The position numbers and the translations under genes are program-made. Positions 4,529 through 56,757 of a DNA stretch of 64,000 nucleotides are shown here, in pieces; the stretch's first letter is position 1; the number at the start of each line of letters is the position of its first letter. The stretch covers positions 15,163 to 79,162 of the forward strand of contig JAJVHZ010000001.1 of assembly GCA_022072255.1 (NCBI GenBank). The letters are read 5' to 3'. Below the pieces are notes generated by a model. That model was given only the letters and a program-made list of their open reading frames with translations. It was not told the DNA's origin and searched no databases. The DNA is from Gammaproteobacteria bacterium. Its GTDB lineage: Bacteria; Pseudomonadota; Gammaproteobacteria; JAJPIJ01.

Positions 4529-4534
4529 CGTGAC

Positions 4535-5704
4535 TTATCCCTCGGGTTTGAATGTGATGGAAAGTATCTTGCCGGCCAGGCCCTTCTGCACCTGCGGATC
4601 GGTCGGGACCGGCAGCGGCGAGGACTTCAGCACCGCCAGTTCCGCCTGGCGATCGAAGGCCGGATCGCCGCTCGATGGATCGACGCGCACGTCCGTCACC
4701 TCGCCATTGGGGGTCAGTTTCACCTTCAGGGTGCAGCGCAGGCCGCTGCCCGGGCGCGGGTTGGTGAAGTTCGACGTGATTCTGCTCTGCCATATCGCCG
4801 TGTACTCGCTGAGCGCGTCACGGATCAGGTTGTTCAGCCGCTGTGCCTCTTCTTCGGCCTGCATCGCGGCCTGGAGTTCCCTCTGGCGCCGCGCCTCCTC
4901 GGCCTCTTCGCGCGCCTTGCGCGCCTCTTCCTCCTGCCGCTGCTTCTCCTCCAGCGCCTTCTGTTTCTCCTCTTCGATGCGCTTTTTCTCCTCCTCGGCC
5001 TTCAGCCGCTCCGCTTCGGCCTTCTGCCGTTCTTCCTCGACCCGCTTCCTCTCCTCCTCGGCCTTCAGCCGCTCCACTTCGGCCTTCTGCCGTTCCTCCT
5101 CGACCTTCTTCTTTTCCTCTTCCCGCTGGCGCTTCTCCTCCTCGATGCGCTGCTTCTCCTCTTCGACGCGCTTTCTCTCCTCCTCGGCCTTCTGTTTCTC
5201 CTCCAGGGCGAGGCGCTTCTCGTTCTCGAGCTTCGTCTTCTCCTTCTCGGCCTTCTGCTTCTCCTCGATCGCCAGCCGCTTCTGCTCCTCTGCCTTGCGG
5301 CGCTCGTCCTCCTGCACCTGCTTCTCGAGCTCGGCGCGCTGGCGCGCCTCCTCGGTCTGCTTGCGGGTCTCCTCCGCGAGCTTCTGCTCATCCTGTACCT
5401 GCTTCAGGCGCTGCTCCTCGGCCTCGCGCTGCCTGCGCGCCTCCTCCGCCCTGGTCTCGAGCTCCTTCTGCCGCGCCTCCTCGGCCTCGCGCTTCTTGCG
5501 CTCGGCCTCGCGCAGCTTCTTCACCTCGGCCTCGATCTGCGTCTCGTCGACCGCCACCGCCTCCACGATGGGCGCGGTGGACGGCGGCGTGAGCGACGGC
5601 GGCTCGCTGAAGTCGATGCTGAACAGCAGCAGCAACACCGCCGCCACGTGGATTGCCACGGCGAACAGGAACGCCTGGAACTTCTGCGCGCGATTGAGTG
5701 ACAC
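4535..5704 (-). CDS. tolA: Tol-Pal inner-membrane coupler TolA
   Basis: TolA spans the periplasm and carries energy from TolQR to the outer membrane. One N-terminal membrane helix (FLFAVAIHVAAVLLLLF, about 12-28) is followed by a roughly 240-residue helical region built almost only of Glu, Lys, Arg, Gln and Ala. A C-terminal domain from about residue 295 (AIWQSRITSNF, LRCTLKVKLTPNGEV) matches TolA domain III. The start is a GTG at 5704; no in-frame ATG lies nearby. The helical region contains a 63-base in-frame duplication. It lies 33 bases after tolR. Confidence 0.95.
   Translation of the reverse strand: MSLNRAQKFQAFLFAVAIHVAAVLLLLFSIDFSEPPSLTPPSTAPIVEAVAVDETQIEAEVKKLREAERKKREAEEARQKELETRAEEARRQREAEEQRLKQVQDEQKLAEETRKQTEEARQRAELEKQVQEDERRKAEEQKRLAIEEKQKAEKEKTKLENEKRLALEEKQKAEEERKRVEEEKQRIEEEKRQREEEKKKVEEERQKAEVERLKAEEERKRVEEERQKAEAERLKAEEEKKRIEEEKQKALEEKQRQEEEARKAREEAEEARRQRELQAAMQAEEEAQRLNNLIRDALSEYTAIWQSRITSNFTNPRPGSGLRCTLKVKLTPNGEVTDVRVDPSSGDPAFDRQAELAVLKSSPLPVPTDPQVQKGLAGKILSITFKPEG
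4988..5113 (-). repeat. 63-bp tandem duplication in the tolA coiled coil
   Basis: Two adjacent 63-base units (about 4988-5050 and 5051-5113) are nearly identical and encode a repeated 21-residue block of the kind AEEERKRVEEERQKAE. The spacing is seen directly from the matching segment around ggccttcagcc at 4997 and 5060. It lengthens the periplasmic helix by three heptads and keeps the frame and heptad phase. Confidence 0.8.
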
Positions 5705-5737
5705 GATCAGTAGAACGCGGAGGATGGGTTCGTGGGG

Positions 5738-6172
5738 TCAACCCTCGGGTTCGGTGAGCAGTCCCACGCCGGTGACCCCCGCGGCGCTCAGGCTCGCCAG
5801 CAGGTGCACGATCTTCTCGTAGACCACGCCCTTGTCGCCCTTGATGAGCACGGGCTCGTCGGGATTCGTGCTGCGCACGGCGAGGATCTTGGCGGCCACG
5901 GTCTGCAGGTCGACGGGCTTCTCCCCGTCCTCGTCCCAGCTGATGAAGTACTCGCCGGCGACGTTGACGGTGATCACGTGCGGCTCGGAATCCGACTCCA
6001 CCGGCTCGGAAACCGCCTTCGGCAGCTCCACGCGCACGCCCTGCGTCACCAGCGGCGCGGTGGCCATGAAGATGATGAGCAGCACCAGCATCACGTCGAT
6101 GTACGGTACCACGTTCATCTCCGCCATCAGCTTCTTGCGCCGCCCGCGGCGGCCTGATTTCATCACCTCCAT
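5738..6172 (-). CDS. tolR: Tol-Pal proton-channel subunit TolR
   Basis: TolR forms the proton-driven motor with TolQ in the inner membrane. The 144-residue protein has a basic N-terminus (SGRRGRRKK), one membrane helix with the essential Asp (VPYIDVMLVLLIIFM) and a periplasmic domain ending in the GVGLLTEPEG tail. I chose the ATG at 6172 because GGGAGG lies about 8 bases upstream. An ATG at 6163 is a second option. The longer open frame to 6352 overlaps tolQ and is not used. Confidence 0.95.
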   Translation of the reverse strand: MEVMKSGRRGRRKKLMAEMNVVPYIDVMLVLLIIFMATAPLVTQGVRVELPKAVSEPVESDSEPHVITVNVAGEYFISWDEDGEKPVDLQTVAAKILAVRSTNPDEPVLIKGDKGVVYEKIVHLLASLSAAGVTGVGLLTEPEG

Positions 6173-6227
6173 GCTCGCTGCCTCCCGGCCGGCGGATAGG
6201 GTCCGGTCACGCTCGGTACGGCGTTCA

Positions 6228-6902
6228 TCAGCTGTGCGCCTGCCGTTGCAGGATGGAGGAGAACTCCTCCAGGAAGATGTCGTAGCGGTTGTAGAGACGA
6301 TCGATGTCGCTGGAGTAGCGGTTGTAGGCGACGAACGCCGGGATGGCGGCAAACAGGCCCATCGCCGTGGCGATCAGTGCCTCGGAGATGCCGGGGGCCA
6401 CCATCGCCAGCGTCGCCTGGTGGACGTTCTGCAGCGCCTGGAAGGAATTCATGATGCCCCAGACGGTGCCGAACAGACCTATATAAGGACTCACGGAGCC
6501 GACGGTCGCGAGGAACGGCAGGCTCGCCTCCAGGTCCTCGATCTCGCGGCTGATGGCCACGCGCATGGCGCGCTGCGCGCCCTCGAGCACCGCCATGGGC
6601 TCTATGCCCTCGCGCTTGCGAAGGCGCGCGAACTCCTTGAAGCCGGCCTCGAAGATCTTCTCCATGCCGCGCGCCTCGCGGCCGCCGGAGTTCAGGCGCG
6701 AGTACAGCGTGGCCAGGTCCTCGGAGTTCCAGAAGCGGTTTTCGAAGTCCTCCGCGCCCCGCCGCGCGCGCTTCATCATGCTGCGCTTGGAGAAAATGAT
6801 CGTCCAGGAGGCGAGCGACGCCACCACCAGCACCAGCATGACGAACTTCACCAGCCAGCTGGCGTGCAGGATCAGACTTGCAACCGATAAATCAGTCTGC
6901 AT
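6228..6902 (-). CDS. tolQ: Tol-Pal proton-channel subunit TolQ
   Basis: TolQ is the multi-spanning partner of TolR, related to ExbB and MotA. The 224 residues show a first membrane helix (LVKFVMLVLVVASLASW), a cytoplasmic loop, and two further helices around TVGSVSPYIGLFGTVWG and ATAMGLFAAIPAFVAYN, which carry the conserved Pro, Gly and Thr residues. The start at 6902 overlaps the end of ybgC by 11 bases, indicating translational coupling. tolR follows 55 bases later. Confidence 0.96.
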   Translation of the reverse strand: MQTDLSVASLILHASWLVKFVMLVLVVASLASWTIIFSKRSMMKRARRGAEDFENRFWNSEDLATLYSRLNSGGREARGMEKIFEAGFKEFARLRKREGIEPMAVLEGAQRAMRVAISREIEDLEASLPFLATVGSVSPYIGLFGTVWGIMNSFQALQNVHQATLAMVAPGISEALIATAMGLFAAIPAFVAYNRYSSDIDRLYNRYDIFLEEFSSILQRQAHS

Positions 6903-7338
6903 GTTCTCGGAACCTCTTGATTGCGTCGTGTATCGGGTCTGGAATGGCGCGCGGCCGGAATGCATCGGCGTCGATGCAGGCCACGACGATGACGCCGCGG
7001 CACAGCAGGTCGCCGTCAGCGCGCACGATGTCCTGTTCAAACTCAATGCTCGCTGAACCGAGTTTCCCCACGCGCGAGCGCACATTCAATTCGTCATTAA
7101 ACCGTGCCGGCTTCAGATAGTCGACCGCGAGGTGCCGCACGGCGAACACCACGCGCTCCTCCGCGAGCAGTCGGTCCTGCTGCCAGCCGAGGGACCGCAG
7201 CCACTCCGTTCGGCCTCTTTCCAGGAATTTCAGGTAGTTGGCGTGGTAGACCACGCCGCCGGCATCGGTGTCCTCGTAATACACGCGCACCGGCCAGACG
7301 AACTCCGCCGCGGCCTCCGCCCCCTGCCTGCGACTCAT
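6892..7338 (-). CDS. ybgC: Acyl-CoA thioesterase YbgC (hot-dog fold)
   Basis: YbgC hydrolyses short acyl-CoA or acyl-ACP thioesters and heads the tol-pal operon in Gammaproteobacteria. The motif VYYEDTDAGGVVYHANYL near residues 18-36 contains the catalytic Asp and the following His of the 4-hydroxybenzoyl-CoA thioesterase group. The 148-residue length is usual. The ATG at 7338 overlaps the stop of the upstream repeat-containing frame as ATGA, and the gene end overlaps tolQ by 11 bases. Confidence 0.94.
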   Translation of the reverse strand: MSRRQGAEAAAEFVWPVRVYYEDTDAGGVVYHANYLKFLERGRTEWLRSLGWQQDRLLAEERVVFAVRHLAVDYLKPARFNDELNVRSRVGKLGSASIEFEQDIVRADGDLLCRGVIVVACIDADAFRPRAIPDPIHDAIKRFREHAD

Positions 7339-8122
7339 GCGACGCTCCAATAGCGGCCACGTGGTCCGAGGGGCCTGCGAAGTGCTGCGACACGCCGTAG
7401 ATACGTCCCTGTAGGCTCCGCGGCCGCATCCCTGCGGCCGAGGGTCGCCGCCCTCCGCAGGCCCCTCGGCCCGAGACTGTCGAAACCGGATGGCGATCGT
7501 CTCCGTGCGCTCTGAGCATTTGCGGTGTCCCCGCCGAAGACGAATGTCGCGCATCCGACGCAGGCCCGCTCGAAGCGATCGAGGACGTTCGGGCAGGGGG
7601 CCGTGATGCGCGCCACGACCCTCGGCCGCAGGGACGCGGCCGCGGAGCGTACATGGATGTATTCACAGCGTGTCGTGGCGGGCGTCACGGCCCCCCGCGT
7701 GGCACGTGAGCCTCCGATCGCCGCGCCGCCGCGGCCCCTTGGGCGAACAGCGTCGAAACCGGCAAGGGCTCGCATCAGTGCTCTCTGAACAGACGAGGTG
7801 TCCCGTCCGCACACGATCGTCGCAGCCTTGTCGCAGGCCCGCTCAACGCGATCGAGGACGTTCGGGCAGGGGGTCGTGATGCGCGCCGCGACCCTCGGCT
7901 GCAGGAATGCGGCCGCGGAGCGTAAATGGATGTAGTCACAGCGTGTCGTGGCCGGCGTCACGGCCTCCTGCGCAGCGCGACCAAGACAAGTGCTTTCCGC
8001 GGAGCGTACAGGGAGGTATGCGCAGCGTGTTGTGGCCCCCTGCTTGGCAATGGCCAGCTCAGTGAGACGAACCGCCTCCATGACCCGTACCCCGGCATGT
8101 TCTGCATCAGCGCGTCCTGCCA

Positions 8123-8123
<1 letters not shown>
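7335..8123 (-). CDS. Repeat-built hypothetical ORF between ruvB and ybgC
   Basis: A 262-codon frame fills the whole space between ruvB and ybgC. Its ATG overlaps the ruvB stop as TGATG at 8121-8125, and its TGA overlaps the ybgC start as ATGA at 7335-7338. Inside are repeated peptide blocks such as TRCDYIHLRSAAAF / TRCEYIHVRSAAAS and PCPNVLDRVERAC / PCPNVLDRFERAC, produced by DNA repeats whose 273-base period is 91 codons. I recognise no domain. The two copies differ at many residues, so a conserved protein function is doubtful. It may be non-functional reading kept open so that translation is not interrupted within the operon. Confidence 0.4.
7366..7469. repeat. Intergenic repeat element, inverted copy with terminal inverted repeats
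   Basis: The element is bounded by a perfect 14-base inverted repeat (CCGAGGGGCCTGCG at 7366-7379 and its complement at 7456-7469). It encloses a perfect 8-base hairpin with a 4-base loop (CGGCCGCA-TCCC-TGCGGCCG, 7421-7440). Between them is the reverse complement of the unit found in direct orientation at 7621 and 7893, with the recurring segments CGCGGAGCCTACAGGGACGT and CGGCGTGTCG. Confidence 0.85.
7621..7692. repeat. Intergenic repeat element, direct copy 1
   Basis: This copy contains the GC hairpin CGGCCGC-AGGGAC-GCGGCCG followed by CGGAGCGTACATGGATGTAT, CACAGCGTGTCGTGGC and GGCGTCACGGCC. It matches the copy at 7893-7964 with only scattered differences and is the reverse complement of the element at 7366-7469. 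Confidence 0.85.
7893..7964. repeat. Intergenic repeat element, direct copy 2
   Basis: This copy reads CTCGGCTGCAGGAATGCGGC, then CGGAGCGTAAATGGATGTAG and CACAGCGTGTCGTGGC. One arm of the GC hairpin has a base change compared with copy 1, so the stem is weaker. It lies 272 bases after copy 1. Confidence 0.85.
7998..8039. repeat. Intergenic repeat element, truncated copy 3
   Basis: Only the distal half of the unit is present: GCGGAGCGTACAGGGAGGTA followed by GCGCAGCGTGTTGTGGCCCC. The GC hairpin is missing. It sits 34 bases after the end of copy 2 and is the most degraded of the four. Confidence 0.75.
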
Positions 8124-9166
<1,043 letters not shown>

Positions 9167-17324: not shown

Positions 17325-20300
17325 TCACGGGCGCGCGCGGCACCGTTCGAGTATCGTCGCCGACGGCACCGGCCTGCCGAAGAGATACCCCTGCATCTCG
17401 TCGCACTTCAGCAGCGTGAGAAACTTCGCCTGCTCCTCCGTCTCGACCCCCTCGGCGATCACCTTCAGATTCAGGGAATGCGCCAGGCTGATCACCGATG
17501 AGACGATCGTCATGCTTTCCCGGTGCGCCGTCATGTTCATGACGAAGGAGCGGTCGATCTTCAGCGCGTCGACGGGCAGCTTCGATATGTAGCTCAGGGA
17601 CGAGTAGCCCGTGCCGAAGTCATCGATCGCCACGCCGATACCGGCCGCGCGCAGCTCGCCGAGCTTGGCGATGTTCTGCTCGATGTCCACCATGATCATC
17701 GACTCGGTGATCTCCAGATCGAGCGGCACCGGATCCCCGCTGCGCCGTATCGCGTTCATCACGTTCTCCGCGAATTCGCGCTGCTGAAGCTGCAGCGCGG
17801 AGACGTTCACCGCGATCCGCGGCGCCGCGCCGAGCTCCTTGCGCCAGGCCCGGTAGTCGCGGGCGGCCTGGTCCAGAGCCCACAGGCCCACCTCCAGGAT
17901 GAGGCCGGTTTCCTCGAGTATGGGGATGAACCGCCCCGGCGGCACGAGCCCAATGTCGGGATCCTGCCATCGGATCAACGCCTCCACCCCCGTGATGCGT
18001 TGCTTGATCGCGTCGATCTTGGGCTGGTAATGCAGGATGAACTGCTCGTTGGCCAGTGCCGTCCGCAGCCTGCGTTCGAGCTGCAGGTTCTCGGCGATCC
18101 TCGCCGTCATCTCGGGCCGATAGAACAGGTACCGCTCGCCGCCGGCCTTGGCCTTCTTGAGCGCCGCCTCGGCGTTCCGGTACAGGGTATCCGCATCCTC
18201 GCCGTCCGTGGGGAAGACGGCGATACCGCCATGGAAGCCGACCCGCACCTCCTCCCCGCCCAGCGGGATCGGTTCCCACAGCGCCGGGAACAGCGAGTTT
18301 GCGAACATGTAGCCGATGCCGGTCGCGTCGCGGACGTCATGCAGGATCATCGCGAAGTAATCGCCGGTGATGCGTCCGAGGTTCACGGGATCGCCGGACA
18401 GATGGCGCAGCCTTTCGGCCGTCCTCTTGAGGATCAGGTCGCCGGCCTCCTCGCCGTATACGTTGTTTACATGGCGGAAGTTCTTCGGGTCGCAGACCAG
18501 CAGCGCGACCTGCTTGCGCGACTGACGGGCCCTGTCCAGCACGGCGTTCAGGTGGGCGTTGAAGAGAGTCCGGTTCGCGAGCCCCGTGAGCGGATCGTAG
18601 GACGACAGGTATTCGAGCTGTTCGGATCTGCCGATGTTCTCCAGCCCGAAGGCGATATCCCCGGCCAGCTCGGTGAGCAGCCGCAGTTCCTCGGCATCGA
18701 AGACGTCCGTCTCCGATGCGTAGAGCGAGAGCACCCCGGCGACCTCGCGACCGACGCGCAGCGGCAGGGCGGCGGCGGCGAAGAAGCCCCGCGACAGCGC
18801 CGCCCCGCGCCATGGAGCCCCGGCGCTGCCGGCCGTCGCGAGGTCATTGAGGATCGCGGGCTCGCCGGTTCGCGCCGCCCGGACGCACACGCAGTCCCGC
18901 TCCGGCATCTCGCCGTCCAGCGCGAGGTGGACGTGCTCCAGATAGCCCTCCACCTGCCCCGCCCAGGACCGCGGCGCGATGGTCCGCTCGCCCTCCGGCA
19001 CGGTCCCGATCCAGGCCATGCGGAAGCCGCCGTCCTCCACCGCGATGCGGCAGGCCTCCCGCAGCAGCTCCTCGCGGTCGCGGACATGCACGATGAGGCC
19101 GTTGATCGCGCTCAGCATCCGGTAAACGCGATTCAGCCTGAGGATCCTCTTGCGCGCCTCCTCGCGCTCGGTGACATCGACCTTGACGGCGACGAAATGC
19201 GTGATCTCGCCCCGCTCGTTCCTTACCGGGGTGATGGTCTGGTCCTCGGTGTAGAGGCTGCCGTCCTTGCGCCGATTGACGATCTCGTCGTGCCAGACGT
19301 CGCCGGCGAGTATCGTGCCCCACAGCCGCCGGTAATAGCCCTCTTCCTGTCGCCCCGACTTGACCAGCTCGCGGGGATTGCGGCCGATGACCTCGCCCAT
19401 CTCGTAGCCGGTGAGCACGCAGTACGCGTGGTTCACCCACAGGATCGTGCCGTCGGTGTCAGTGATCATGATGGCGTTGGCCGATGCGGCCAGGGCGGTG
19501 CTCTGCAGCTGCGACTGCTGCTCCGCCTGCTTGCGGGTGGTGATCTCCATCACCGTGCCGCGCAGCCGCCCGGGCTGCCCGGGTTCCCCGTCAGTGGCTT
19601 CTCCCTGTCCCAGTACCCAGTGCACGCTGCCGTCCGGCCACACGACGCGGAACTCCCGCCTGAAGGGATCCTTCGTGGCCGTGCAGCGGGCGAACTCCGC
19701 TTCGAGGCCGGCCAGGTCCTCCGGATGGATCCGCTGCGTGAAGGCGGCGTACGTCCCGTCGAACTCCCCGGGCGCGTAGCCCCAGAGTTCCTCGTGCCGC
19801 GGTGACCAGGTCACCCGGGTCCCACGCGCGTCCCACTCGAAGGTACCCATGCGCGCGGCGTCCAACGCCAGTCGCAGTCGCGTCTCGCTCTCGCGCAGCG
19901 CGTCCTCCGCCAGCCGGCGGCTGGCCTCGCGCTGCAGCGTGTCGAGCGCGAAGGACACGTCCTCCGCCATCTCTTCGAGCAGATGCTGCTGGTCGGCATC
20001 GGCGAGGAGGTCCGGGTCGTCGGTGTACAGGTTCAGAACGCCGATGACCTCGCCGTTCAGGCGGATTGGCACCGAGGCGGTTGCCTGGAAGTCCGCGGGC
20101 GCGGCCGGCCCCTCCCAGGAATGCATGACAGGGTCCGACTGCATGTCACGGTCGTAGGTCACACGGCCCGAGGCGATGGCCAGGGCCATGGGGCCTGCGC
20201 CGGGGGCCGGGCCCGCGACATCGAATCCCCGGCGTGACAGCCGATCGTGTCCCGCGCCGTATGCGCAGACCGGCCTCAGCACACCGGCGGCGCGATCGAG

Positions 20301-21986
20301 CAGGCCCATCCATGCCAGCGCCATGCCCCCGCGCTCCACCGCGACGCGGCAGATGCCCGCGAACAGGGCATCCCGATCCTGCACACGCACGATGAGCTGG
20401 TTCACATCGGTCAGTGCGGCGTAAAGGCGCGAGAGGTGCTGCACGCGCGACTCGGCCAGCTTGCGCTCGATGAGCAGGCCTATCTGCGCGGCGACGGCCG
20501 CGACCACATGCATCATCCGCCGCTCCTCCGCGCCCGTCTCGAGGAGAAAGAAGCCCATCACCAGCACGACCTGTTCGCGCGCGAGCACCGGCAGGCCCAC
20601 CGCTGCCTTGAGCCCTGCCGCCGCCGCGGCCTGCAGGCGCCTGAACGGGGACCATATCCGCACATCGTCGACCCATTCCGGCCGCGTGCTACTCCATACC
20701 CGGCCGGGCAGGCCCTCGCCGGGCGCGAAGGTGACGCTGCGGCTCACCTGCCGGAACTGCTCCAGCCCCGGCGCCCGGCTGTGCCACACCGGGTGGCATT
20801 CCAGCCGCGTGCGGTCGCGGGTCGGCAGCCACACCTCGCCCATGGCCCATCCGGTCTCATCGCAGACCTTCCGCAGCACGTACGCCAGCGCGTCGTTGAG
20901 GTCCGCCGCCTCGCCGATGCCGCGGGCTATGGCCTGCAGCAGGCGCGATTCGGCCTCCGCGCGATTGCGCTCGGTCAGGTCGATGCCCACGCCCGCCAGG
21001 TGCGGCCGCCCGTCGAGGTCGAGCCGCACGCCGGTGAAATAGAACGGCGTGCGAGTCCCGTCGCGCGCGGTGAAGTGCGCCTCGGCGTCCGCCCTGCCCT
21101 CGGTGAAGACCCGCCCGATGCGTTGGCGGATCAGCGCCTGCTCCGCGCCGGTGAAGAAATCCAGCGGCTGGCGCTGCCGGAACTCCTCCTCCGTGTAGCC
21201 GCTCAGGCGCACGAGATTCTGGTTCCAGTGCGCGAAGCGGCCCTGCTCGTCGAACAGGTAGAAGATGCCGGGGAGGCTCCTGAGGATCGAGTCGGAGAGC
21301 AGCCGCTCGTTCTGGATCTCCGCCGCGGAGCGCAGCCGCTCGGTGATGTCCCGGGCGATGCCGAAGAGCCCGATGATGCGGCCATCGGCGTCGCGCACCG
21401 GGCCCTTGGTGGTGAGAAATGTCCGTGCCTTGCCGCCGAGGGTGATGGTCTCCTCGAAGGTCTCCGTGCTGCCGGAGGCCATGATGTGCCGGTCCTTCGC
21501 CATGACCTCCCGGGCCTCCTGCGGCAGCAGCAGCGCCGTGTCGTCCCGGCCGAGCACCTCCGCGCGCGGGCGGCCGAGGATGTCGCAGGCGCCGGCGTTG
21601 AACAGCAGGTAGCGGCCGTCGATGTCTTTCACGTAGACGGCATCGGGCGTCCCCTCGCTCACGTGCGCGAGCAGCGTCTCGTAACGCCGTGTCTCCTCGC
21701 GGCTGTCCCGCAGGGCGGCCCCGGCGCGTTCCCGCAGGCGCAGTTCGCCCCTCAGTACGACCGCCAGCAGCACGCCGGTGATGACGACGAAGGCCCAGCC
21801 CTTGTAGATCGACCATTGTGCATACGTGGAACCATCCCGGACCAGCGCCTCCAGCACCCTGTCGGAGACCAGGATCCACAGGCTGGCAAACCCGGCATAG
21901 TAGGAGACGACGCGAAGGATGCCCCTGGCGTGATTCGTCATCGCGTCGCGCCGGCCGCTAGGCTGAGCGCCCGGCCGGATTTCCAT
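17325..21986 (-). CDS. Multi-sensor PAS/GAF protein with degenerate GGDEF and intact EAL domain
   Basis: The 1,553 residues have two N-terminal membrane helices (about 25-45 and 65-85), two PAS domains (about 100-345), two GAF domains (about 350-705), two PAS domains (about 725-975), a third GAF domain (about 985-1125), GGDEF (about 1135-1295) and EAL (about 1300-1550). The GGDEF site reads TGDYF, so cyclase activity is probably lost. The EAL domain keeps GVEALIRW, ITESMIM, DDFGTGYSSL and EGVET, so it is probably a c-di-GMP phosphodiesterase with a regulatory GGDEF domain. An alternative start is the ATG at 21941. The ligands of the sensor domains are unknown. It lies 74 bases after the next GGDEF gene. 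Confidence 0.93.
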   Translation of the reverse strand: MEIRPGAQPSGRRDAMTNHARGILRVVSYYAGFASLWILVSDRVLEALVRDGSTYAQWSIYKGWAFVVITGVLLAVVLRGELRLRERAGAALRDSREETRRYETLLAHVSEGTPDAVYVKDIDGRYLLFNAGACDILGRPRAEVLGRDDTALLLPQEAREVMAKDRHIMASGSTETFEETITLGGKARTFLTTKGPVRDADGRIIGLFGIARDITERLRSAAEIQNERLLSDSILRSLPGIFYLFDEQGRFAHWNQNLVRLSGYTEEEFRQRQPLDFFTGAEQALIRQRIGRVFTEGRADAEAHFTARDGTRTPFYFTGVRLDLDGRPHLAGVGIDLTERNRAEAESRLLQAIARGIGEAADLNDALAYVLRKVCDETGWAMGEVWLPTRDRTRLECHPVWHSRAPGLEQFRQVSRSVTFAPGEGLPGRVWSSTRPEWVDDVRIWSPFRRLQAAAAAGLKAAVGLPVLAREQVVLVMGFFLLETGAEERRMMHVVAAVAAQIGLLIERKLAESRVQHLSRLYAALTDVNQLIVRVQDRDALFAGICRVAVERGGMALAWMGLLDRAAGVLRPVCAYGAGHDRLSRRGFDVAGPAPGAGPMALAIASGRVTYDRDMQSDPVMHSWEGPAAPADFQATASVPIRLNGEVIGVLNLYTDDPDLLADADQQHLLEEMAEDVSFALDTLQREASRRLAEDALRESETRLRLALDAARMGTFEWDARGTRVTWSPRHEELWGYAPGEFDGTYAAFTQRIHPEDLAGLEAEFARCTATKDPFRREFRVVWPDGSVHWVLGQGEATDGEPGQPGRLRGTVMEITTRKQAEQQSQLQSTALAASANAIMITDTDGTILWVNHAYCVLTGYEMGEVIGRNPRELVKSGRQEEGYYRRLWGTILAGDVWHDEIVNRRKDGSLYTEDQTITPVRNERGEITHFVAVKVDVTEREEARKRILRLNRVYRMLSAINGLIVHVRDREELLREACRIAVEDGGFRMAWIGTVPEGERTIAPRSWAGQVEGYLEHVHLALDGEMPERDCVCVRAARTGEPAILNDLATAGSAGAPWRGAALSRGFFAAAALPLRVGREVAGVLSLYASETDVFDAEELRLLTELAGDIAFGLENIGRSEQLEYLSSYDPLTGLANRTLFNAHLNAVLDRARQSRKQVALLVCDPKNFRHVNNVYGEEAGDLILKRTAERLRHLSGDPVNLGRITGDYFAMILHDVRDATGIGYMFANSLFPALWEPIPLGGEEVRVGFHGGIAVFPTDGEDADTLYRNAEAALKKAKAGGERYLFYRPEMTARIAENLQLERRLRTALANEQFILHYQPKIDAIKQRITGVEALIRWQDPDIGLVPPGRFIPILEETGLILEVGLWALDQAARDYRAWRKELGAAPRIAVNVSALQLQQREFAENVMNAIRRSGDPVPLDLEITESMIMVDIEQNIAKLGELRAAGIGVAIDDFGTGYSSLSYISKLPVDALKIDRSFVMNMTAHRESMTIVSSVISLAHSLNLKVIAEGVETEEQAKFLTLLKCDEMQGYLFGRPVPSATILERCRARP

Positions 21987-35369: not shown

Positions 35370-38300
35370 ATGCGGCTCCAACCAACGATGGCATCGATCG
35401 GCATGAACAACACGACAGGGATCCCCGCAGGCAGCCGTCGGGAGAGGGCGGCGTTCGTCGTCATCCTGCTGGCGACGCTGGCGCTTTTCGGCCATTTCAT
35501 CTGGTCCGCCTACCGCGACTCGAATCGCGCGGCGGAGACCACCGTGGAGAACCTGGCGCGCGTCATCGAGCATGACCTGCACGTCACCCTGGCGCGCGCC
35601 GACCGTGACCTGACCGCGGCGGCCGCGATGATTGCCGAGGATCGGACCCGCGAGCGGTCGGATTGGCCCTCCGTGCTGAGGAGCATCGACCTTCGAAGGC
35701 TTGCCTTGACGGAGACCGACCTCGGACGCCTTGCCGTCGTCGGCCCCGCTCGCACCGGCTGGATCCTCGTGGACCCTGCCAACGGCGAGATCGAGCCCGC
35801 CGGAGCGGCGATCACGCAGACGATCGATTTTGGGGCGGGCGGCGATCTCATGGTCGCGGTCCCGGCGTCGCCGGCAGGCGGTGCGGCGTCGTGGCTGCTC
35901 TACCGCCTCGTGAGGGATACGGCGGGCACGGTCACGGGCGCGGTCGCCCTGATCGTCGACACCAGGCAGATCGAGCGATTGATCAAGGACATCGAGCTCG
36001 GCGCGGAGGGCCTCGTCGTGGTGCGCCACGTGGATGACAATGCCCTGCTGCTGCGGCGGCCGGCGCTCCGGAACTCCGCAGCGGCGGCGCGCAGCACGCC
36101 GGCGTACGAACGCATCGCGCGGGGCGAGCAGTCCGGGGTGGGGCGCATCGTCTCGCCGTTCGACGGTGTGGAGAGGGTCCTTGGATTCCGGCGCGTCGCC
36201 GGCTACCCGTTGTTCGTCATCGTCGGGTATCCCACGCGCGAGTATCTGTCGCCGTGGATGCAGCGCTCGCTGGGGTCGGGGACCGCCGCGGCCGTGTTGC
36301 TCGCCGCGCTGGCGTGGATGATGCGAAGGCGCCTGCGCAGCGAGATCAGCCTGCGGGAGAGCACCGCGGCCCTGCAGGAGGCCGAATCCGTGGGCGGCCT
36401 CGGACACTGGGAGGCGGAGGCGGCCTCGGGCGCCGTGCGCTGGTCGCCGAACATGTACCGTCTGCTCGGCATCGATCCGTCCACGCCCGCATCACGCGAG
36501 GCATTCGACGCCATCGTGCACTCCGAGGACCGCGTCCGGGTCCACGCGGCCTGGCGGCAGGCGGCGCAGGAAGGCACCTTCGACATCGAACACCGCATCA
36601 TCGTCGGCGGACAGGTCCGATGGGTGCGCGCCCGCGCCCGCACGATGAAGGACGCCAGGGGCGTGCCGGCGCGCGCCGTCGGTACCGTGCTCGACATCAC
36701 CGCCAGGAAGACCGCGGCGAACGCGCTCGCCGCCGAGCGCAATCTGCTGCGGACGATCCTCAACGCCATACCCGATTTCGTGTTCCTGAAGGACGAGACG
36801 GGCGTGTATCAACTGTGCAATCCGGCCGTCGAGCGGTACTTCGGCAGACCCGAGCAGGAGATCATCGGGCGCACCGACTTCGAGCTGGTCGACGCCGGCA
36901 CCGCCGCCGGGTTCCGGCGCGACGACATGGCCGCGATGGCAAGGCCCGAATCGTCACGCAAGGAGGAGAAGCTCAGGAACCGCGACGGCAGCCGCCTGTA
37001 CACGGAGACGATCAAGCTGCCCGTGCACGGCCCGGATGGCGGCCTGCTCGGCCTGCTCGGCGTCGCCCGCGACGTCACCGTCCGCAGGCTCGCGGAACTG
37101 TCGCTGATCGAGAGCGAGGCGCGGTTCCGCTCGCTGGCCGACTCCACCGCGGTGATGATCTGGATGGCCGGCGTCGACGGACGGGGCACGTATTTCAACC
37201 GCGCGTGGCTGGAGTTCTCCGGACGCACGTTCGAGGAGGAGGTCGCCGCGGACTGGTGGCGCGACGTGCATCCGGACGATCTCGACGCGACCCTCGCGGC
37301 CTATCGCGAGGGATTCCACTCGCGCGCGGATTTCATCGTGGAATACCGGCGGCGGCGCCACGATGGCGCCTGGCGATGGGTGCTGGATACCGGCCGGCCG
37401 CGGCGTACCGCCGAGGGAGTCCTCTGCGGTTTCATCGGCTCGTGCCTGGACATCTCGGAGCGCAAGCGGCTGCAGATATGGGACAGCTCGCGCGCGACGA
37501 TCCTCGAGATGCTGGCCCGCGGCGCATCGCTGACGGCGGTGCTGGAGCGTATCGCCACCAGCGCCGAGGAAGAAGACAGGGAGGTGCGCTGTTCAATCCT
37601 GCTGCTGGATGCTACCGGGCGCCGCCTGCTCACCGGCGCCGCCCCGAGCCTGCCGGCCTTTTACTCCGCGGCAGTCAACGGCATGGAGATCGGCCCGGAG
37701 GCAGGCAGTTGCGGGTCCGCCGCCTATCGCCGCGAGCTGGTGGTCGTCGAGGATGTCCAGACCCACCCGCGTTGGGCGCAATTCAGGGAGCTCGCCGCGC
37801 GCGCCGGCCTGCGGGCCTGCTGGTCGGTACCGATCTTCGCCAGTGACGGGGCGGTGTTGGGCACATTCGCCGTGTATTACGCCACGCCGCGCCGTCCCGG
37901 CGATACCGAGCTGGCGACGATCGAGTTCAAGGCCCGGCTGGCGGGGATCGCCATCGAGCGCGTGCGGACCGAGCGCGCACTGGCGGAGAGCGAACTGAAG
38001 TACCGTACCCTGCTCGATGCGATGGCCGATGGCGTATACGTCGTGCAGGATTACCGTCTCGTGTATGCGAACGCTGCACTGGCGCTGCTGCTCGGCTACG
38101 GGCACGAGCACGAGGGACTGATCGGATTGCCGCTGGCCGAGGCGGTCGCACCGGATTTTCGCGATCTGGTCGTCCGGCGCTACGAGCAGCGGGTCGGAGG
38201 CGGCGAGCAGCCGCCGCGGCGCTACGAGGTCAGGATGTTGCGGCGCGACGGGTGCGAGGTGTGGGCCGAGCTCATCGCTTCGTACATGACGTTCAACGGA

Positions 38301-40223
38301 CGCCCCGCGGCCCTGGTCATCGTGCGCGACAACACCGAGCGCCGGCATGCCGAGCAGTTTCTGCGCGACGTCATCGAGTCGACCTCCGACGGCATACTGG
38401 TGGAGGACAGGAGCGGCCGCGCGCTGATCACGAATCACTGCTTCCAGGAGATGTGGAACGTCCCCTCCGCGCCCCTGCAGTCCGGCGAGGAGCACGCCCA
38501 CGGCTACGTGCAGGCGCAGCTCGCCGACGACGCGGACCTGCCGGCGCAGACCGCGGATCTGAGTTCGCAGGACCAGTGGCGGGACTATCACCTGTTGCAG
38601 GTCCGCGACGGGCGGCTGATCGCACGCCATTCCAGTCCGCTCATGCGTGACGGTGCGGTGGCCGGCCGCGTATGGTCGTTCCGCGACGTCACCGAGCGCC
38701 GCAAGACCGAGATCCTCTATCGCAGCGTCGTCGAGTCCTCCCCGGATGCCTTCGTCGCCGCCGACGAGGACGGCCGCATCGTCGACTGGAGCCCGCGCGC
38801 CGAGCAGATCTTCGGATGGCCGGCCGGGGCGGTCATGGGCCGGTCCCTGCACGAGACCATCATTCCGCCGGCGTATCGCGACCTGCACGTGGAGGGCCTG
38901 CGCCGCTTCCTGCGCGGCGGCGAGGCGCGCACCATCGGGCGCGTGATGCGCGTGACCGCGTTGCACAGTGGCGGGCAGGAGTTCCCGGTGGAGCTGCAGG
39001 TGAGCGCGGTGCGCATCGGCAGCCGCTGGCGCTTCACCAGCTTCATCCGCGACATCACCAGCCGCGTGCTCGCCGAGCAGCAACTGGCGCAGGCGCAGCG
39101 CATGGAGGCCATCGGCCAGCTCACCGGCGGGCTGGCGCACGACTTCAACAACATGCTCGGCATCATCATCGGCAGTCTCGACCTGCTGTCGCTGGAGCAG
39201 ACCGACGCCGAGGCGCGCGAGCTCATCGGCACCGCGATGTCGGCGGCCCATCGCGGGGTCGAGGTGACCAAGTCGCTGCTGGCGGTGGCGCGGCGCCAGC
39301 CGCTGGCGCCGAAGATCGTGGAGGTCGACGCGGCCCTGACCGAGATGGGACCGCTGCTGCGGCAGACCGCCGGCAAGCGAATCGAGGTTCGCCTGGAGCC
39401 AGGCGTTCCGGGCGCGCGCGCCTACCTCGACCCGGGCAGCTTCAACAACGCCGTACTGAACACGGTGATCAACGCGCGCGACGCCATGCCCGCCGGCGGC
39501 GAGCTGCGCATCGGCACCGCCCTGATCAATGCCGCCGACACCCACCTCGCCACGGACCTCGGCCCGGGGACCTACATCGAGGTGAGGGTCGAGGATACCG
39601 GCTGCGGCATGCCCCCGGAGGTGGTCGAGCGCGCATTCGATCCGTTCTTCACCAGCAAGGAGCGCGGCAAGGGCACCGGCCTCGGTCTGGCGATGGTCTA
39701 CGGGTTCGCGCGGCAGTCCGGCGGCACCGCGACCATAGGCAGCACGGTGGGGGTGGGGACCTGCGTGACGCTCGTGCTGCCGGTGGCGGCGACATCGGTT
39801 CGACAGGACGAGGCGGCGACGGTGCCGGGCGACCGACAGGCGGCGCGGGCGGGAGAGTCGGTGCTGGTGGTCGACGACGAGTCCGACCTGCGCCAGATCA
39901 TCCGGGAATGGCTGGTCGCGGCCGGCTACCGGGTGGCGTTGGCAGATACGCCCGCGGAGGCGTTGAAGCGGGTGCAGGCCGAGCACTTCGACCTGATGCT
40001 GACCGACGTCGTCATGCCAGGCCCGATGGACGGCGCGGCGCTCGCGCGCGCGATCATGCAACACCATCCCGGTACGCGCGTGCTGCTGATGAGCGGCTAT
40101 GCCGACGACGCGCTCGATGGCGCCAGGCAGCAGTGGAGGGTGCTGGAGAAGCCGTTCCGGCGGGACGAGCTCGCGCACGCCGTGCGCCGCGAGCTCGATC
40201 AGCGCGACGCCCTGCCGGCATGA
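35370..40223 (+). CDS. Giant hybrid sensor histidine kinase (six PAS, one GAF, REC)
   Basis: The 1,617 residues contain a membrane helix (about 28-46), a periplasmic Cache-like sensor (about 50-300), a second helix (about 303-320), PAS domains (about 330-450, 463-577, 579-700), a GAF domain (about 711-868) and PAS domains (about 874-992, 994-1110, 1112-1235). Next are HisKA with His about 1257 in [10 protein letters not shown], an ATPase domain with [12 protein letters not shown] and [13 protein letters not shown], and a C-terminal receiver with [14 protein letters not shown] (Asp about 1546) and EKPF. All catalytic residues are present. The start at 35370 is the first ATG before the first helix; ATGs at 35388 and 35403 are options. 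Two response-regulator genes follow. Confidence 0.93.
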
Positions 40224-40338
40224 GGGTTGCATTTGAAGCGATGCGAGCATCCCGGGATCCGGGCCCCGGCGCGGCGGCCCCGCGCGCTGGAAACTGCCGT
40301 CGGCCCACGCGCCGGGCGGCAGAAGGTGAATATCCGCA

Positions 40339-41559
40339 ATGTCCGGATTCGCGGCGTTGAACATGCAAGAGCAAGGTACGGCAGCACGCCCGCGACTGCT
40401 GGTCATCGATGACGAGGCCGGCATACGGACGCTGGTGCGGCGCGTCGGCCGGCAGGCGGGCTTCGAGGTGCAGGAGGCGGGCGCGGCGGTGGAACTGCGC
40501 GCCAGCCTGCAGCAGGCGCAGGATGTGATCGCGCTGGATCTGGCGATGCCGGACATAGACGGCATCGAGGTGATACGCGAGCTGGCGCACGCCGGCTGCA
40601 AGGCCAGGCTCATCCTCATCAGCGGCTTCGATCGGCGCGTGCTCGACACGGCCGCGCGTCTTGCCGCGGGCCTGGGATTGAACCTCAGGGGCGCGCTGCC
40701 CAAGCCATTCAGCGTTACCGACCTGCTCGCTCTCCTGCGGGCCGAGCAGCAGGCCCCGGGGGGCAGCATCGCCCGGCTGGAGGTCACCGCCGGTGAACTG
40801 CGGCGGGCGCTCGATGCCGGCGAGCTGGTGGTGCATTTCCAGCCGCAGGTCGAATTCGCGGACGGAAGCTGGCGCGGCGTGGAGGCACTGGTGCGGTGGC
40901 AGCATCCGCGCCACGGACTCATCCAGCCCGCGGCGTTCATCCCACTGGCGCAGACCGAGGAATTCGCCATTCCGGTCACCCAACGCGTGCTGGAGCTCGC
41001 GCTGGCCGGCTACTCCGATCTGCTCGACACCGCCGGCTTCGACGGCGCGCTCGCCATCAACATACCGGGCAGCGCCCTGTCCGACGTGCACTTCCCCGAG
41101 CACGTCGTGGAGCGCATCGCCGCGCGCGGGATCGCGCACCGTCACATGGTGTTCGAGGTCACCGAGACCTCGTTGGCCAACCAGCCCACCGTGGCCGCCG
41201 ACATCCTGGCGCGGCTGCGCATCAAGGGATTCAATCTTTCCATCGACGATTTCGGCACCGGCTACTCCTCGCTGGAGTCGCTGCACCGTCTGCCGTTCAC
41301 GGAATTGAAGATCGACATGCAGTTCGTGCAGGCGGCCGAGACCGATGGGGTGGCGCGCGCCATCGTCGAGAATTCCATCGAACTGGCGAAACAGCTCGGG
41401 ATGAAGGTGATCGCCGAGGGCGTGCAGACCGCCGGACAGTGGCGCTGGCTGAAGGCGCGCGGATGCCACCTGGCGCAGGGATATCTCGTCAGCCGCCCAT
41501 TGCCGGCCGCGGACCTTCGCGCCTGGGGCGGCGCCTGGCGGCCGCCGGCGAACGAGTAG
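40339..41559 (+). CDS. Response regulator with EAL output domain (c-di-GMP phosphodiesterase)
   Basis: The 406 residues have an N-terminal receiver (about 19-135: VIDDEAG, phosphoacceptor in ALDLAMPDIDG, LISG, LPKPF) and a C-terminal EAL domain (about 150-395) with GVEALVRW, VFEVTET, IDDFGTGYSS, KIDMQFV and IAEGVQT. The metal and catalytic residues appear intact, so it should degrade c-di-GMP under phosphorylation control. It lies 115 bases after the hybrid kinase and 3 bases before the next regulator, so it is probably its target. Confidence 0.93.
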   Translation: MSGFAALNMQEQGTAARPRLLVIDDEAGIRTLVRRVGRQAGFEVQEAGAAVELRASLQQAQDVIALDLAMPDIDGIEVIRELAHAGCKARLILISGFDRRVLDTAARLAAGLGLNLRGALPKPFSVTDLLALLRAEQQAPGGSIARLEVTAGELRRALDAGELVVHFQPQVEFADGSWRGVEALVRWQHPRHGLIQPAAFIPLAQTEEFAIPVTQRVLELALAGYSDLLDTAGFDGALAINIPGSALSDVHFPEHVVERIAARGIAHRHMVFEVTETSLANQPTVAADILARLRIKGFNLSIDDFGTGYSSLESLHRLPFTELKIDMQFVQAAETDGVARAIVENSIELAKQLGMKVIAEGVQTAGQWRWLKARGCHLAQGYLVSRPLPAADLRAWGGAWRPPANE

Positions 41560-41562
41560 CGC

Positions 41563-42516
41563 ATGGCCCTGGACGGCATCGACGGTGGCGGTGGCTGCAT
41601 GAGCCTGTCGGCGACGACGGCCAGCCCGGCCCGCGTGCTCGCGGTCGACGACGAAGGCTTTTATCTGAAGCTCATCGAGAAGTACCTCGCGCCGGCGGGG
41701 TTCGAGGTGATCGTGGCCGACAGCAGCGGGCGCGCGTGGGAGCTGCTGGAGCAGCAGCCTCAGGGGGCATTCGATGCCGTGCTGCTGGACCGGAACATGC
41801 CGGGCGAGGACGGCATACAGTTTCTCGGCCGGATCAAATCCGCCCCGGCCCTGCGCGACGTGCCCGTCATCATCCAGACCGGTCTGGCCGAACCGCGGCA
41901 GGTGGCCGAGGGGATCGCCAGGGGCGCCTACTACTACCTCGCCAAGCCGTTTGCCAGCGACGTGCTGCGTTCGATCGTCTCCGCGGCGGTCCGCGATTAC
42001 AGGAATCAAAGCGACCTGCAGGCGCGCCTCAGCCGCCAGGCGCATGGCAACGCGATGCTGCAGCTTGCAGAGTTCAGGTGTCGCACGCTCGAGGAGGTGA
42101 GCACGCTCGCCGCGCACCTGGCGCTGTTCTTTCCGGACCCGCAGCGCGTGGTGACGGGCATCTCGGAGTTCCTGCTCAATGCCGTCGAGCACGGCAATCT
42201 CGAGCTGAGCTACGCGGACAAGTCCGCGCTGCTGCGCGAGGGCGCCTGGCACGCGGAGATCGAGCGGCGCCTGTCGCTGCCGCAGTTCGCCGGGCGCCAG
42301 GTGCGCGTCATCCTGGAGAATCGCCCGGACCGCGTGACACTGACCGTCATCGACGGTGGCGCGGGTTTCGACTGGCAGGCCTATCTCGATTTCAATCCCG
42401 CGCGCGCCTTCGACCTGCATGGCCGCGGCATCGCCATGAGCCGCCTGATGTGCTTCGACGACGTGGAGTACCGCGGCGGCGGCAACGAGGTGCTGCTGAC
42501 CGTGATGCGCCAGTGA
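41563..42516 (+). CDS. Response regulator with RsbW-like HATPase output domain
   Basis: The 317 residues join a receiver (about 24-145: VDDEGFYLKL, LLDRNMPGEDG, QTG, LAKPF) to a GHKL ATPase domain of the anti-sigma type (about 165-315), with N-box ISEFLLNAVEHGNLEL, D-box VIDGGAGFDW and the late motif GRGIAMSRLMCFDD plus GGGNEVLL. Such domains usually bind a sigma factor or phosphorylate an STAS antagonist, but no PP2C or STAS partner gene is adjacent. A second start at 41599 is possible. It lies 3 bases after the REC-EAL gene. Confidence 0.92.
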   Translation: MALDGIDGGGGCMSLSATTASPARVLAVDDEGFYLKLIEKYLAPAGFEVIVADSSGRAWELLEQQPQGAFDAVLLDRNMPGEDGIQFLGRIKSAPALRDVPVIIQTGLAEPRQVAEGIARGAYYYLAKPFASDVLRSIVSAAVRDYRNQSDLQARLSRQAHGNAMLQLAEFRCRTLEEVSTLAAHLALFFPDPQRVVTGISEFLLNAVEHGNLELSYADKSALLREGAWHAEIERRLSLPQFAGRQVRVILENRPDRVTLTVIDGGAGFDWQAYLDFNPARAFDLHGRGIAMSRLMCFDDVEYRGGGNEVLLTVMRQ

Positions 42517-42558: not shown

Positions 42559-43023
42559 TCATTGCTGAGCATTGAGGACTCGCAGTAGGCAACTACGCGC
42601 AGCATCGTAGATGCCTGGCTGTTTCGCCTCGCGAGGACCGGCAACGTTAAGCGTACGGACCTTCAGAGCACGCAGCCAGGAGGAGATCTGGTGGTGTGCC
42701 GTTGGGTCGTCCAGATCGACGACAAGACACGGCCTGGAAAGTCGGTTCGCAATGGCGACGGTGTGAGCAGTGCCGCCCTCCGTTTGCCCGCGCTTCAGCA
42801 CCAGTGTGGCATCGGCGTCCACGACATTCCGCTTGGTACGTTGCTCGTAGCGGTTGCTCTCTGTCTCGAGCAGGGGGTACCGCTCCGGAATGGCACCGTC
42901 CTCAGCGCGACGGCCTTTGGGGCACCAGCCGCCGCAGGCAATGCCCATTTCCAGTGCGGCGTCCAGCGCCGCACGGTCGACGCCCGTTTGTCCTCCCGAG
43001 ACGATCTTCGTCGGGGTTGTCAT
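42559..43023 (-). CDS. Putative molybdenum carrier / nucleotide-binding protein
   Basis: The 154-residue protein matches the family annotated as putative molybdenum (Moco) carrier, with KIVSGGQTGVDRAALDAAL at the N-terminus, GGWCPKGRRAEDG, and the nucleotide-binding TEGGTAHTVAIAN. The Moco role is by family name only; the fold is Rossmann-like (LOG/SLOG-type). The start at 43023 follows CCAGGAGTG. It lies 50 bases from the 3' end of tRNA-Leu, and its codon choice is less GC-biased than its neighbours, which suggests it was acquired. Confidence 0.85.
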   Translation of the reverse strand: MTTPTKIVSGGQTGVDRAALDAALEMGIACGGWCPKGRRAEDGAIPERYPLLETESNRYEQRTKRNVVDADATLVLKRGQTEGGTAHTVAIANRLSRPCLVVDLDDPTAHHQISSWLRALKVRTLNVAGPREAKQPGIYDAARSCLLRVLNAQQ

Positions 43024-43073: not shown

Positions 43074-43161
43074 TGGTGCCGAGAGAGGGAGTCGAACCCT
43101 CACGGGGGGTTACCCCGGCGGATTTTGAGTCCGCTGCGTCTGCCGGTTCCGCCATCTCGGC
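43074..43161 (-). tRNA. tRNA-Leu (anticodon CAA)
   Basis: The minus-strand transcript begins GCCGAGATGGCGGAA and has anticodon stem GCGGA/TCCGC with loop CTCAAAA (anticodon CAA). A long variable arm of the class II type (CGGGGTAACCCCCCG) precedes the T arm AGGGTTCGACTCCCT, and CCA is encoded at 43074-43076. A long variable arm and this D arm are diagnostic for tRNA-Leu. Confidence 0.97.
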
Positions 43162-56446: not shown

Positions 56447-56757
56447 ACACCGCCCGGCTCGTGAAGGGCGACGGGCAGACTTTTTTCCTCGACGGCGATG
56501 TCGCGCTGGCCACGGTGCCGTCCCTGCTCGCCCAGTCCAGGGAGCTGTGGGCGGGCGATGGCGATCAGGTCATCGACATGTCCAGGGTGCGGCGCATCGA
56601 CAGCAGCAGCCTGGCGCTCATGCTCGAATGGGCGCGCGCCGCCAGGGCCGGCGGTGGTTCCGTGCGCTTTCGCAGCGTCCCCGGCCAGGTGCTGGCGGTC
56701 GCCCGGCTCTGTGGCGTCGAGACGCTGCTTCCGGTCGATTCGGCTGGCGGCCCGTAG
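56443..56757 (+). CDS. mlaB: STAS-domain protein MlaB
   Basis: MlaB is the cytoplasmic STAS subunit that stabilises MlaF. The 104-residue protein has the STAS core: GDVALATVPSLLAQ, the VIDMSRVRRIDSSSLALMLE strand-helix around residue 45 with the conserved Ser-Ser, and a C-terminal VARLCGVETLLPV. It starts with GTG at 56443, overlapping the mlaC stop by 4 bases. An ATG start is not available. Although STAS proteins can pair with RsbW-like ATPases, its place in mlaFEDCB argues for a Mla role. Confidence 0.9.
   Translation: MNTARLVKGDGQTFFLDGDVALATVPSLLAQSRELWAGDGDQVIDMSRVRRIDSSSLALMLEWARAARAGGGSVRFRSVPGQVLAVARLCGVETLLPVDSAGGP

What the first reader, a model, noticed from the sequence alone, without database searches (positions are those of the whole stretch)
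35370..42516. Signalling cluster: giant hybrid kinase, REC-EAL and REC-anti-sigma-like ATPase
Three plus-strand genes are consecutive. A 1,617-residue kinase with six PAS, a GAF and its own receiver precedes a receiver-phosphodiesterase and, 3 bases later, a receiver fused to an RsbW-like ATPase. All phosphotransfer residues and EAL catalytic residues are present. The last protein has the ATPase boxes but no neighbouring PP2C, STAS or sigma gene. One phosphorelay may therefore control both c-di-GMP level and an unknown partner-switch output.
Basis: partly seen in the sequence, partly recalled or inferred. Interest (0 to 1): 0.6.

Follow-up and report, generated by a model that had tools for sequence, protein, structure and literature searches.

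The report
Kinase operon pairing c-di-GMP and anti-sigma regulators
A bacterial gene trio in which one membrane sensor kinase sits beside two response regulators, one that should destroy the messenger c-di-GMP and one that resembles a switchable anti-sigma protein; the same pairing recurs in unrelated bacteria with a different c-di-GMP-degrading enzyme, so the two outputs are probably controlled together.

Summary
In detail: three plus-strand genes encode a 1,617-aa hybrid histidine kinase (plus an unreported dCache sensor domain), a RocR-like REC-EAL and a REC-Bergerat (HATPase_c_2) protein, with catalytic residues intact. The third gene's start is probably 41599, not 41563.

The last protein is of the type of Leptospira LvrC (PDB 9QIH; PMC13269768, 2026), a Rec-regulated putative anti-sigma factor whose sigma partner is unknown. 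The orthologous trio occurs only in one sister genome. As an architecture it recurs: kinase > REC-phosphodiesterase > REC-Bergerat appears in six other loci, with HD-GYP instead of EAL. A REC-phosphodiesterase lies within two genes of 13 of 92 LvrC-type genes, against 0 of 40 other response regulators (p=0.007; loci partly related). Six LvrC-type loci lie in clusters with both REC-PP2C and STAS genes.

The kinase has no Hpt domain, and the sister genome with the trio shows no RsbV-type stand-alone STAS, so the partner in this genus is open. New variant of a known kind.

The parts
35370..40223 (+). Hybrid histidine kinase, 1617 aa: TM, dCache-type sensor, TM, three PAS, GAF, three PAS, HisKA, HATPase_c, REC; no Hpt
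   Evidence: 78% identical ortholog in sister genome
   Evidence: PF22588, 34.5 bits, cut-off 27; hydrophobic segments read from the translation
37524..37958 (+). GAF domain of the kinase
39114..39788 (+). HisKA and HATPase_c core, H-box HDFNN (H1257), N box, G1, GTGLGL
39861..40187 (+). C-terminal receiver of the kinase, acceptor D1546
40339..41559 (+). REC-EAL response regulator, RocR/PvrR-like c-di-GMP phosphodiesterase, acceptor D67, EAL E182
   Evidence: PDB RocR 3SY8 full-length match E 1.6e-49; 88% identical in sister genome
41563..42516 (+). REC-HATPase_c_2 (Bergerat) response regulator of LvrC type; start more probably 41599 (305 aa)
41635..41979 (+). Receiver domain of the LvrC-type protein, acceptor D76
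42100..42501 (+). Bergerat ATPase domain with E202/N206 N box, family insert (Y217, K220), G1 D264-G266-G268, G2 G287-R288-G289

Best explanation
The trio is a branched two-component system. A membrane-anchored hybrid kinase with a dCache sensor, six PAS and a GAF domain senses a signal and phosphorylates two response regulators encoded just downstream. One is a RocR-like REC-EAL phosphodiesterase, whose activity toward c-di-GMP is set by its receiver. The other is an LvrC-type protein, in which a receiver gates a Bergerat ATPase that works like RsbW/SpoIIAB: it either phosphorylates a STAS antagonist or sequesters a sigma factor. The cell would so couple a fall of c-di-GMP to a change in gene expression. 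Shown here: the domains, catalytic residues, conservation of the trio in the sister genome, membership of the third protein in a family with LvrC, and recurrence of the pairing with phosphodiesterase regulators and with REC-PP2C/STAS genes. Inferred: phosphotransfer from this kinase to both regulators, the direction of each effect, and the identity of the Bergerat domain's partner.
For: Domains and residues. Third protein matches LvrC (PDB 9QIH) over its whole length by sequence (E 1.9e-13) and LvrC is the top structural hit; LvrC is phosphorylated by LvrB in vitro (PMC13269768). Alignment of 76 family members: N206, G211, K220, G266, G268, G287, G289 invariant, E202 in 75, D76 in 75. Same gene order kinase > REC-HD-GYP > REC-Bergerat in six loci (L116, L120, L123, L147, L210, L212), the closest being L210 in the same class with a 1524-aa PAS/GAF hybrid kinase. 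REC-phosphodiesterase within two genes: 13/92 against 0/40 control regulators, Fisher p=0.007. On the tree the phosphodiesterase-neighbour state changes 9 times and the PP2C/STAS state 6 times, so the links arose or were lost repeatedly. REC-PP2C and STAS both within three genes in six loci of six families (L103, L107, L150, L151, L201, L208); L107 also has REC-HD-GYP, L201 also a GGDEF protein.
Against: Orthologous trio in one sister genome only. STAS adjacency alone is not above the control (7/92 against 4/40). Loci are partly related, and the control regulators were picked by receiver similarity. No Hpt in this kinase. No RsbV-type stand-alone STAS above cut-off in the sister genome that keeps the trio. 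That one kinase feeds both regulators rests on adjacency. The full-length structure model is only moderate (pLDDT 74, pTM 0.49, shallow alignment). Most members of the family (79 of 92) have no phosphodiesterase regulator within two genes.
Confidence: 0.6

Rival explanations
1. The Bergerat domain is a direct anti-sigma factor, as proposed for LvrC, and has no STAS partner in this genus; phosphorylation of the receiver releases or captures a sigma factor such as RpoS.
For: LvrC is interpreted in this way (PMC13269768); the third domains of CrsR and HsbR bind RpoS (PMC6482189); the sister genome keeps the trio without an RsbV-type stand-alone STAS.
Against: No sigma gene seen among neighbours (no sigma-70 family in the listed Pfam tallies of 158 neighbours, though families matched once were partly cut off; rough motif scan empty); six other family members lie with STAS and REC-PP2C genes; catalytic Glu and Asn are kept, as for a kinase.
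Confidence: 0.3
2. The two regulators are neighbours only because two-component genes cluster; they answer to different kinases and have unrelated roles.
For: These genomes hold many two-component genes, kinases are as common next to control regulators, and most LvrC-type genes have other neighbours or none.
Against: REC-phosphodiesterase neighbours 13/92 against 0/40, with EAL (window) and HD-GYP (elsewhere) in the same position and never REC-GGDEF within two genes, although REC-GGDEF was the commonest type among the control regulators; trio and spacer lengths kept in the sister genome.
Confidence: 0.2
3. The third protein is a pseudo-enzyme or scaffold: the receiver-controlled ATP-binding domain binds ATP but does not phosphorylate, and its partner is the REC-EAL protein or the kinase itself.
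For: No substrate known; a conserved insert of about 30 residues between N box and G1 sets the family apart.
Against: All ATP-site residues including the putative general base are conserved in 75-76 of 76 members; LvrC crystallised with ADP-Mg (PMC13269768).
Confidence: 0.1

Closest known systems
LvrC (LIC11110) of Leptospira interrogans, with LvrA/LvrB; PDB 9QIH, PMC13269768
   Same: REC followed by Bergerat anti-sigma-like domain; full-length sequence and top structure match; fed by a kinase cascade that includes a hybrid kinase; family-specific insert (EHG...Y..K) shared
   Different: About 22% identical over the structural alignment; LvrC is phosphorylated by a REC-headed kinase LvrB not found here; no phosphodiesterase regulator is described in the Lvr papers read
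RocS1/RocR/RocA1 and PvrS/PvrR/RcsB of Pseudomonas aeruginosa
   Same: Hybrid kinase with a REC-EAL phosphodiesterase and a second response regulator (arrangement from general knowledge); REC-EAL matches RocR and PvrR
   Different: There the second regulator is a DNA-binding protein; here it is REC-Bergerat
HsbR/HsbA/HsbD of P. aeruginosa and CrsR/CrsA of Shewanella (PMC6482189, PMC5085249)
   Same: Receiver-controlled kinase/anti-sigma domain; joint control of a partner switch and of c-di-GMP
   Different: HsbR is one REC-PP2C-ATPase protein with a STAS partner; here PP2C and STAS are missing beside the trio and c-di-GMP breakdown, not synthesis, is attached. Locus L201 looks like a split version: STAS, REC-PP2C, REC-Bergerat, GGDEF
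RsbW/SpoIIAB anti-sigma kinases of Bacillus
   Same: Bergerat fold, N box E..N, G1, G2
   Different: No receiver; encoded with RsbV and sigma factor (general knowledge)

Membership tests
LvrC-type REC-Bergerat response regulators | N-terminal receiver with acceptor Asp, acidic pair, Thr/Ser and Lys | tested here: met
   D29, D30, D76, T106, K128
LvrC-type REC-Bergerat response regulators | C-terminal Bergerat domain with ATP-site residues, alignable over full length to LvrC | tested here: met
LvrC-type REC-Bergerat response regulators | Phosphorylated by its kinase; acts on a sigma factor or STAS protein | not testable with these tools
   needs biochemistry; the sigma step is unproven for LvrC too
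RocR/PvrR-type REC-EAL phosphodiesterases | REC plus catalytically complete EAL domain | tested here: met
RocR/PvrR-type REC-EAL phosphodiesterases | PvrR equivalog score (580 bits) | tested here: not met
   239 bits: same type, not a PvrR ortholog
HsbR/CrsR partner switch | REC-PP2C-ATPase in one protein with STAS antagonist | tested here: not met
   no PP2C domain in the protein and no STAS beside the trio
RsbW-RsbV-sigma partner switch | Adjacent RsbV-type STAS and sigma factor | tested here: not met
   none adjacent; only one RsbV-type STAS found in the genome, in a separate cluster, and none in the sister genome
Multi-step phosphorelay | Hpt domain between hybrid-kinase receiver and regulators | tested here: inconclusive
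   no Hpt in the kinase; stand-alone Hpt candidates of 146 and 105 aa elsewhere

The most novel reading that the evidence does not exclude
LvrC-type regulators and c-di-GMP phosphodiesterase regulators form a widespread two-output module under one kinase, in which a drop in c-di-GMP and a STAS/sigma partner switch are triggered together; the partner of LvrC-type proteins, unknown so far, is generally a STAS protein countered by a REC-PP2C phosphatase.
Probability: 0.35. Interest if true: 0.7.

Novelty: new variant of a known kind. Interest (0 to 1): 0.5.

Why it matters
The partner of LvrC-type anti-sigma-like regulators is unknown. The gene neighbourhoods found here name testable partners (STAS and REC-PP2C proteins) and a second output (c-di-GMP breakdown), and point to compact environmental genomes (such as the 1.9 Mb G116 and the 2.4 Mb G446) in which the test is simple.

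Tried and rejected
SiaC-type STAS (PF09345) in the genome: no hit, but the control genomes did not ring either, so absence is not shown. STAS adjacency as a stand-alone statistic: not above the control. The matched-genome comparison (11/30 against 0/40) is biased because control genomes were partly chosen for having the association; the 13/92 figure is used instead. The 144-aa frame downstream of the trio in the sister genome has no Pfam match and looks spurious. 'SenB', the molecule name of PDB 9QIH, led nowhere in the paper library until the fold search gave the entry title LvrC. Plasmid search found only two Azospirillum relatives, with a kinase upstream and a diguanylate cyclase beside them. 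Sigma genes near the family: none found, but the tallies list only the first 25 families.

Full report
What is there. The three genes are real and as described. The REC-EAL protein has all EAL catalytic motifs and matches P. aeruginosa RocR over its full length. The last protein has an intact receiver and an intact Bergerat ATP site. Its start is probably 41599: between the window and the sister genome the DNA is identical for about 27 bases from just before that ATG but divergent upstream, and the sister has GGAGG in front of it. No sigma-70-type promoter was found in the region, and the terminator-like sites are no more than chance, so operon structure rests on spacing and conservation: the kinase to REC-EAL spacer has the same length in both genomes.

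Conservation of the trio. The window lies in a 4.27 Mb assembly of 128 contigs. No other genome surveyed has REC-EAL next to a REC-Bergerat gene.

What the third protein is. Its only full-length relative of known structure is PDB 9QIH, which the structure search names as LvrC of Leptospira. The paper (PMC13269768) reports that LvrB phosphorylates LvrC, that LvrC is a receiver joined to an RsbW-like Bergerat domain, and that its sigma partner is unknown. The family is widespread: E <= 1e-25 matches in 45 of 398 genomes of the phylum, 25 of 369 of the class, and relatives in several Nitrospira and on two Azospirillum plasmids. Among 76 aligned members the ATP-site residues and a lysine in a family-specific insert are essentially invariant. 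In two members (L150, L151) the receiver is degenerate while the ATP site is intact.

Neighbourhoods. I called genes and assigned domains in 92 loci outside the window's genus and outside the Nitrospira set. Three patterns stand out. First, a REC-phosphodiesterase lies within two genes in 13 loci, in every case REC-HD-GYP; 12 of the 13 HD-GYP proteins keep both the HDxGK and the HHExxDGxGYP-type motif, L107 is partly degenerate. Six loci have the order kinase > REC-HD-GYP > REC-Bergerat on one strand; L210 has a 1524-aa PAS/GAF hybrid kinase with Hpt, very like the window's kinase in layout. Forty other response regulators from the same group of genomes gave 0 (Fisher p=0.007). Non-homologous EAL and HD-GYP domains filling the same slot points to selection for the activity rather than common descent. 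Second, six loci in six families have both REC-PP2C and STAS within three genes (L103, L107, L150, L151, L201, L208). In a set of twelve genomes picked before STAS was looked at, three had a STAS gene adjacent or nearly so although they hold only 2 to 7 STAS genes each. STAS adjacency alone, however, does not exceed the control, which came from STAS-rich genomes. Third, some loci combine outputs: L107 has REC-PP2C, STAS, REC-HD-GYP and REC-Bergerat in a row; L201 has STAS, REC-PP2C, REC-Bergerat and a GGDEF protein, a split version of P. aeruginosa HsbR/HsbA/HsbD (PMC6482189; PMC5085249). A tree of the family shows 9 changes of the phosphodiesterase-neighbour state and 6 of the PP2C/STAS state (quick tree, weakly resolved backbone).

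Caveats. Loci within genera are not independent, control regulators were chosen by receiver similarity, domain models were built here from few seeds (checked with Pfam for 20 neighbours), and gene calls are simple. The p value is indicative only.

Mechanism. The best reading is a branched two-component system with two outputs, c-di-GMP breakdown and a Bergerat-domain switch. Shown: anatomy, family, recurrence. Inferred: phosphotransfer and partners. The kinase lacks Hpt; the genome has stand-alone Hpt candidates, or the kinase histidine may serve the regulators directly. The genome has one canonical GAF-PP2C, RsbW, STAS cluster on contig C7, but the sister genome, which keeps the trio, has over the cut-off only an MlaB-like match and matches in long proteins of about 500-600 residues. 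So in this genus the partner could be a sigma factor directly, as the CrsR and HsbR domains bind RpoS (PMC6482189).

Verdict. A real, functional-looking module, a new variant of a recently described kind, with a modest but genuine comparative case for joint control. Interest 0.5.

Noticed in passing
L201 (G638:C61:96400-109300), 4288-8572: STAS, REC-PP2C, REC-Bergerat and GGDEF genes in a row on one strand, preceded by CheB: looks like P. aeruginosa HsbA/HsbR/HsbD with HsbR split into two regulators.
   Followed up: partly
L150 and L151 (G446, G355): LvrC-type proteins with degenerate receivers (acidic pair, switch Thr and Lys lost; in L151 also the acceptor Asp) but intact ATP sites, next to REC-PP2C and STAS genes: receiver control seems to have been lost or moved to the phosphatase.
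   Followed up: partly
G000:C7:98993-101000 (L060): GAF-PP2C, RsbW and STAS genes in one cluster, followed by an MlaE-like permease gene; the sister genome G001 has no such RsbV-type STAS above cut-off.
   Followed up: partly
window 17325-21986, minus strand: Very large frame (1553 aa) with multiple PAS and GAF domains, GGDEF and EAL.
   Followed up: no
window 42559-43017, minus strand: Circularly permuted YpsA (SLOG, PF12694) gene between the trio and a tRNA-Leu (43074-43161); the longer frame to 43155 overlaps the tRNA.
   Followed up: no
window 56482-56736, plus strand: STAS domain directly after MlaD/MlaC-like genes and before a murA-like gene: MlaB-like, not an anti-sigma antagonist.
   Followed up: partly
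L039 3105-7447, minus strand: In the sister genome the trio is followed, two small frames later, by a sensor protein and an 814-aa EAL protein with a receiver-like N-terminus on the same strand, absent at this place in the window.
   Followed up: no
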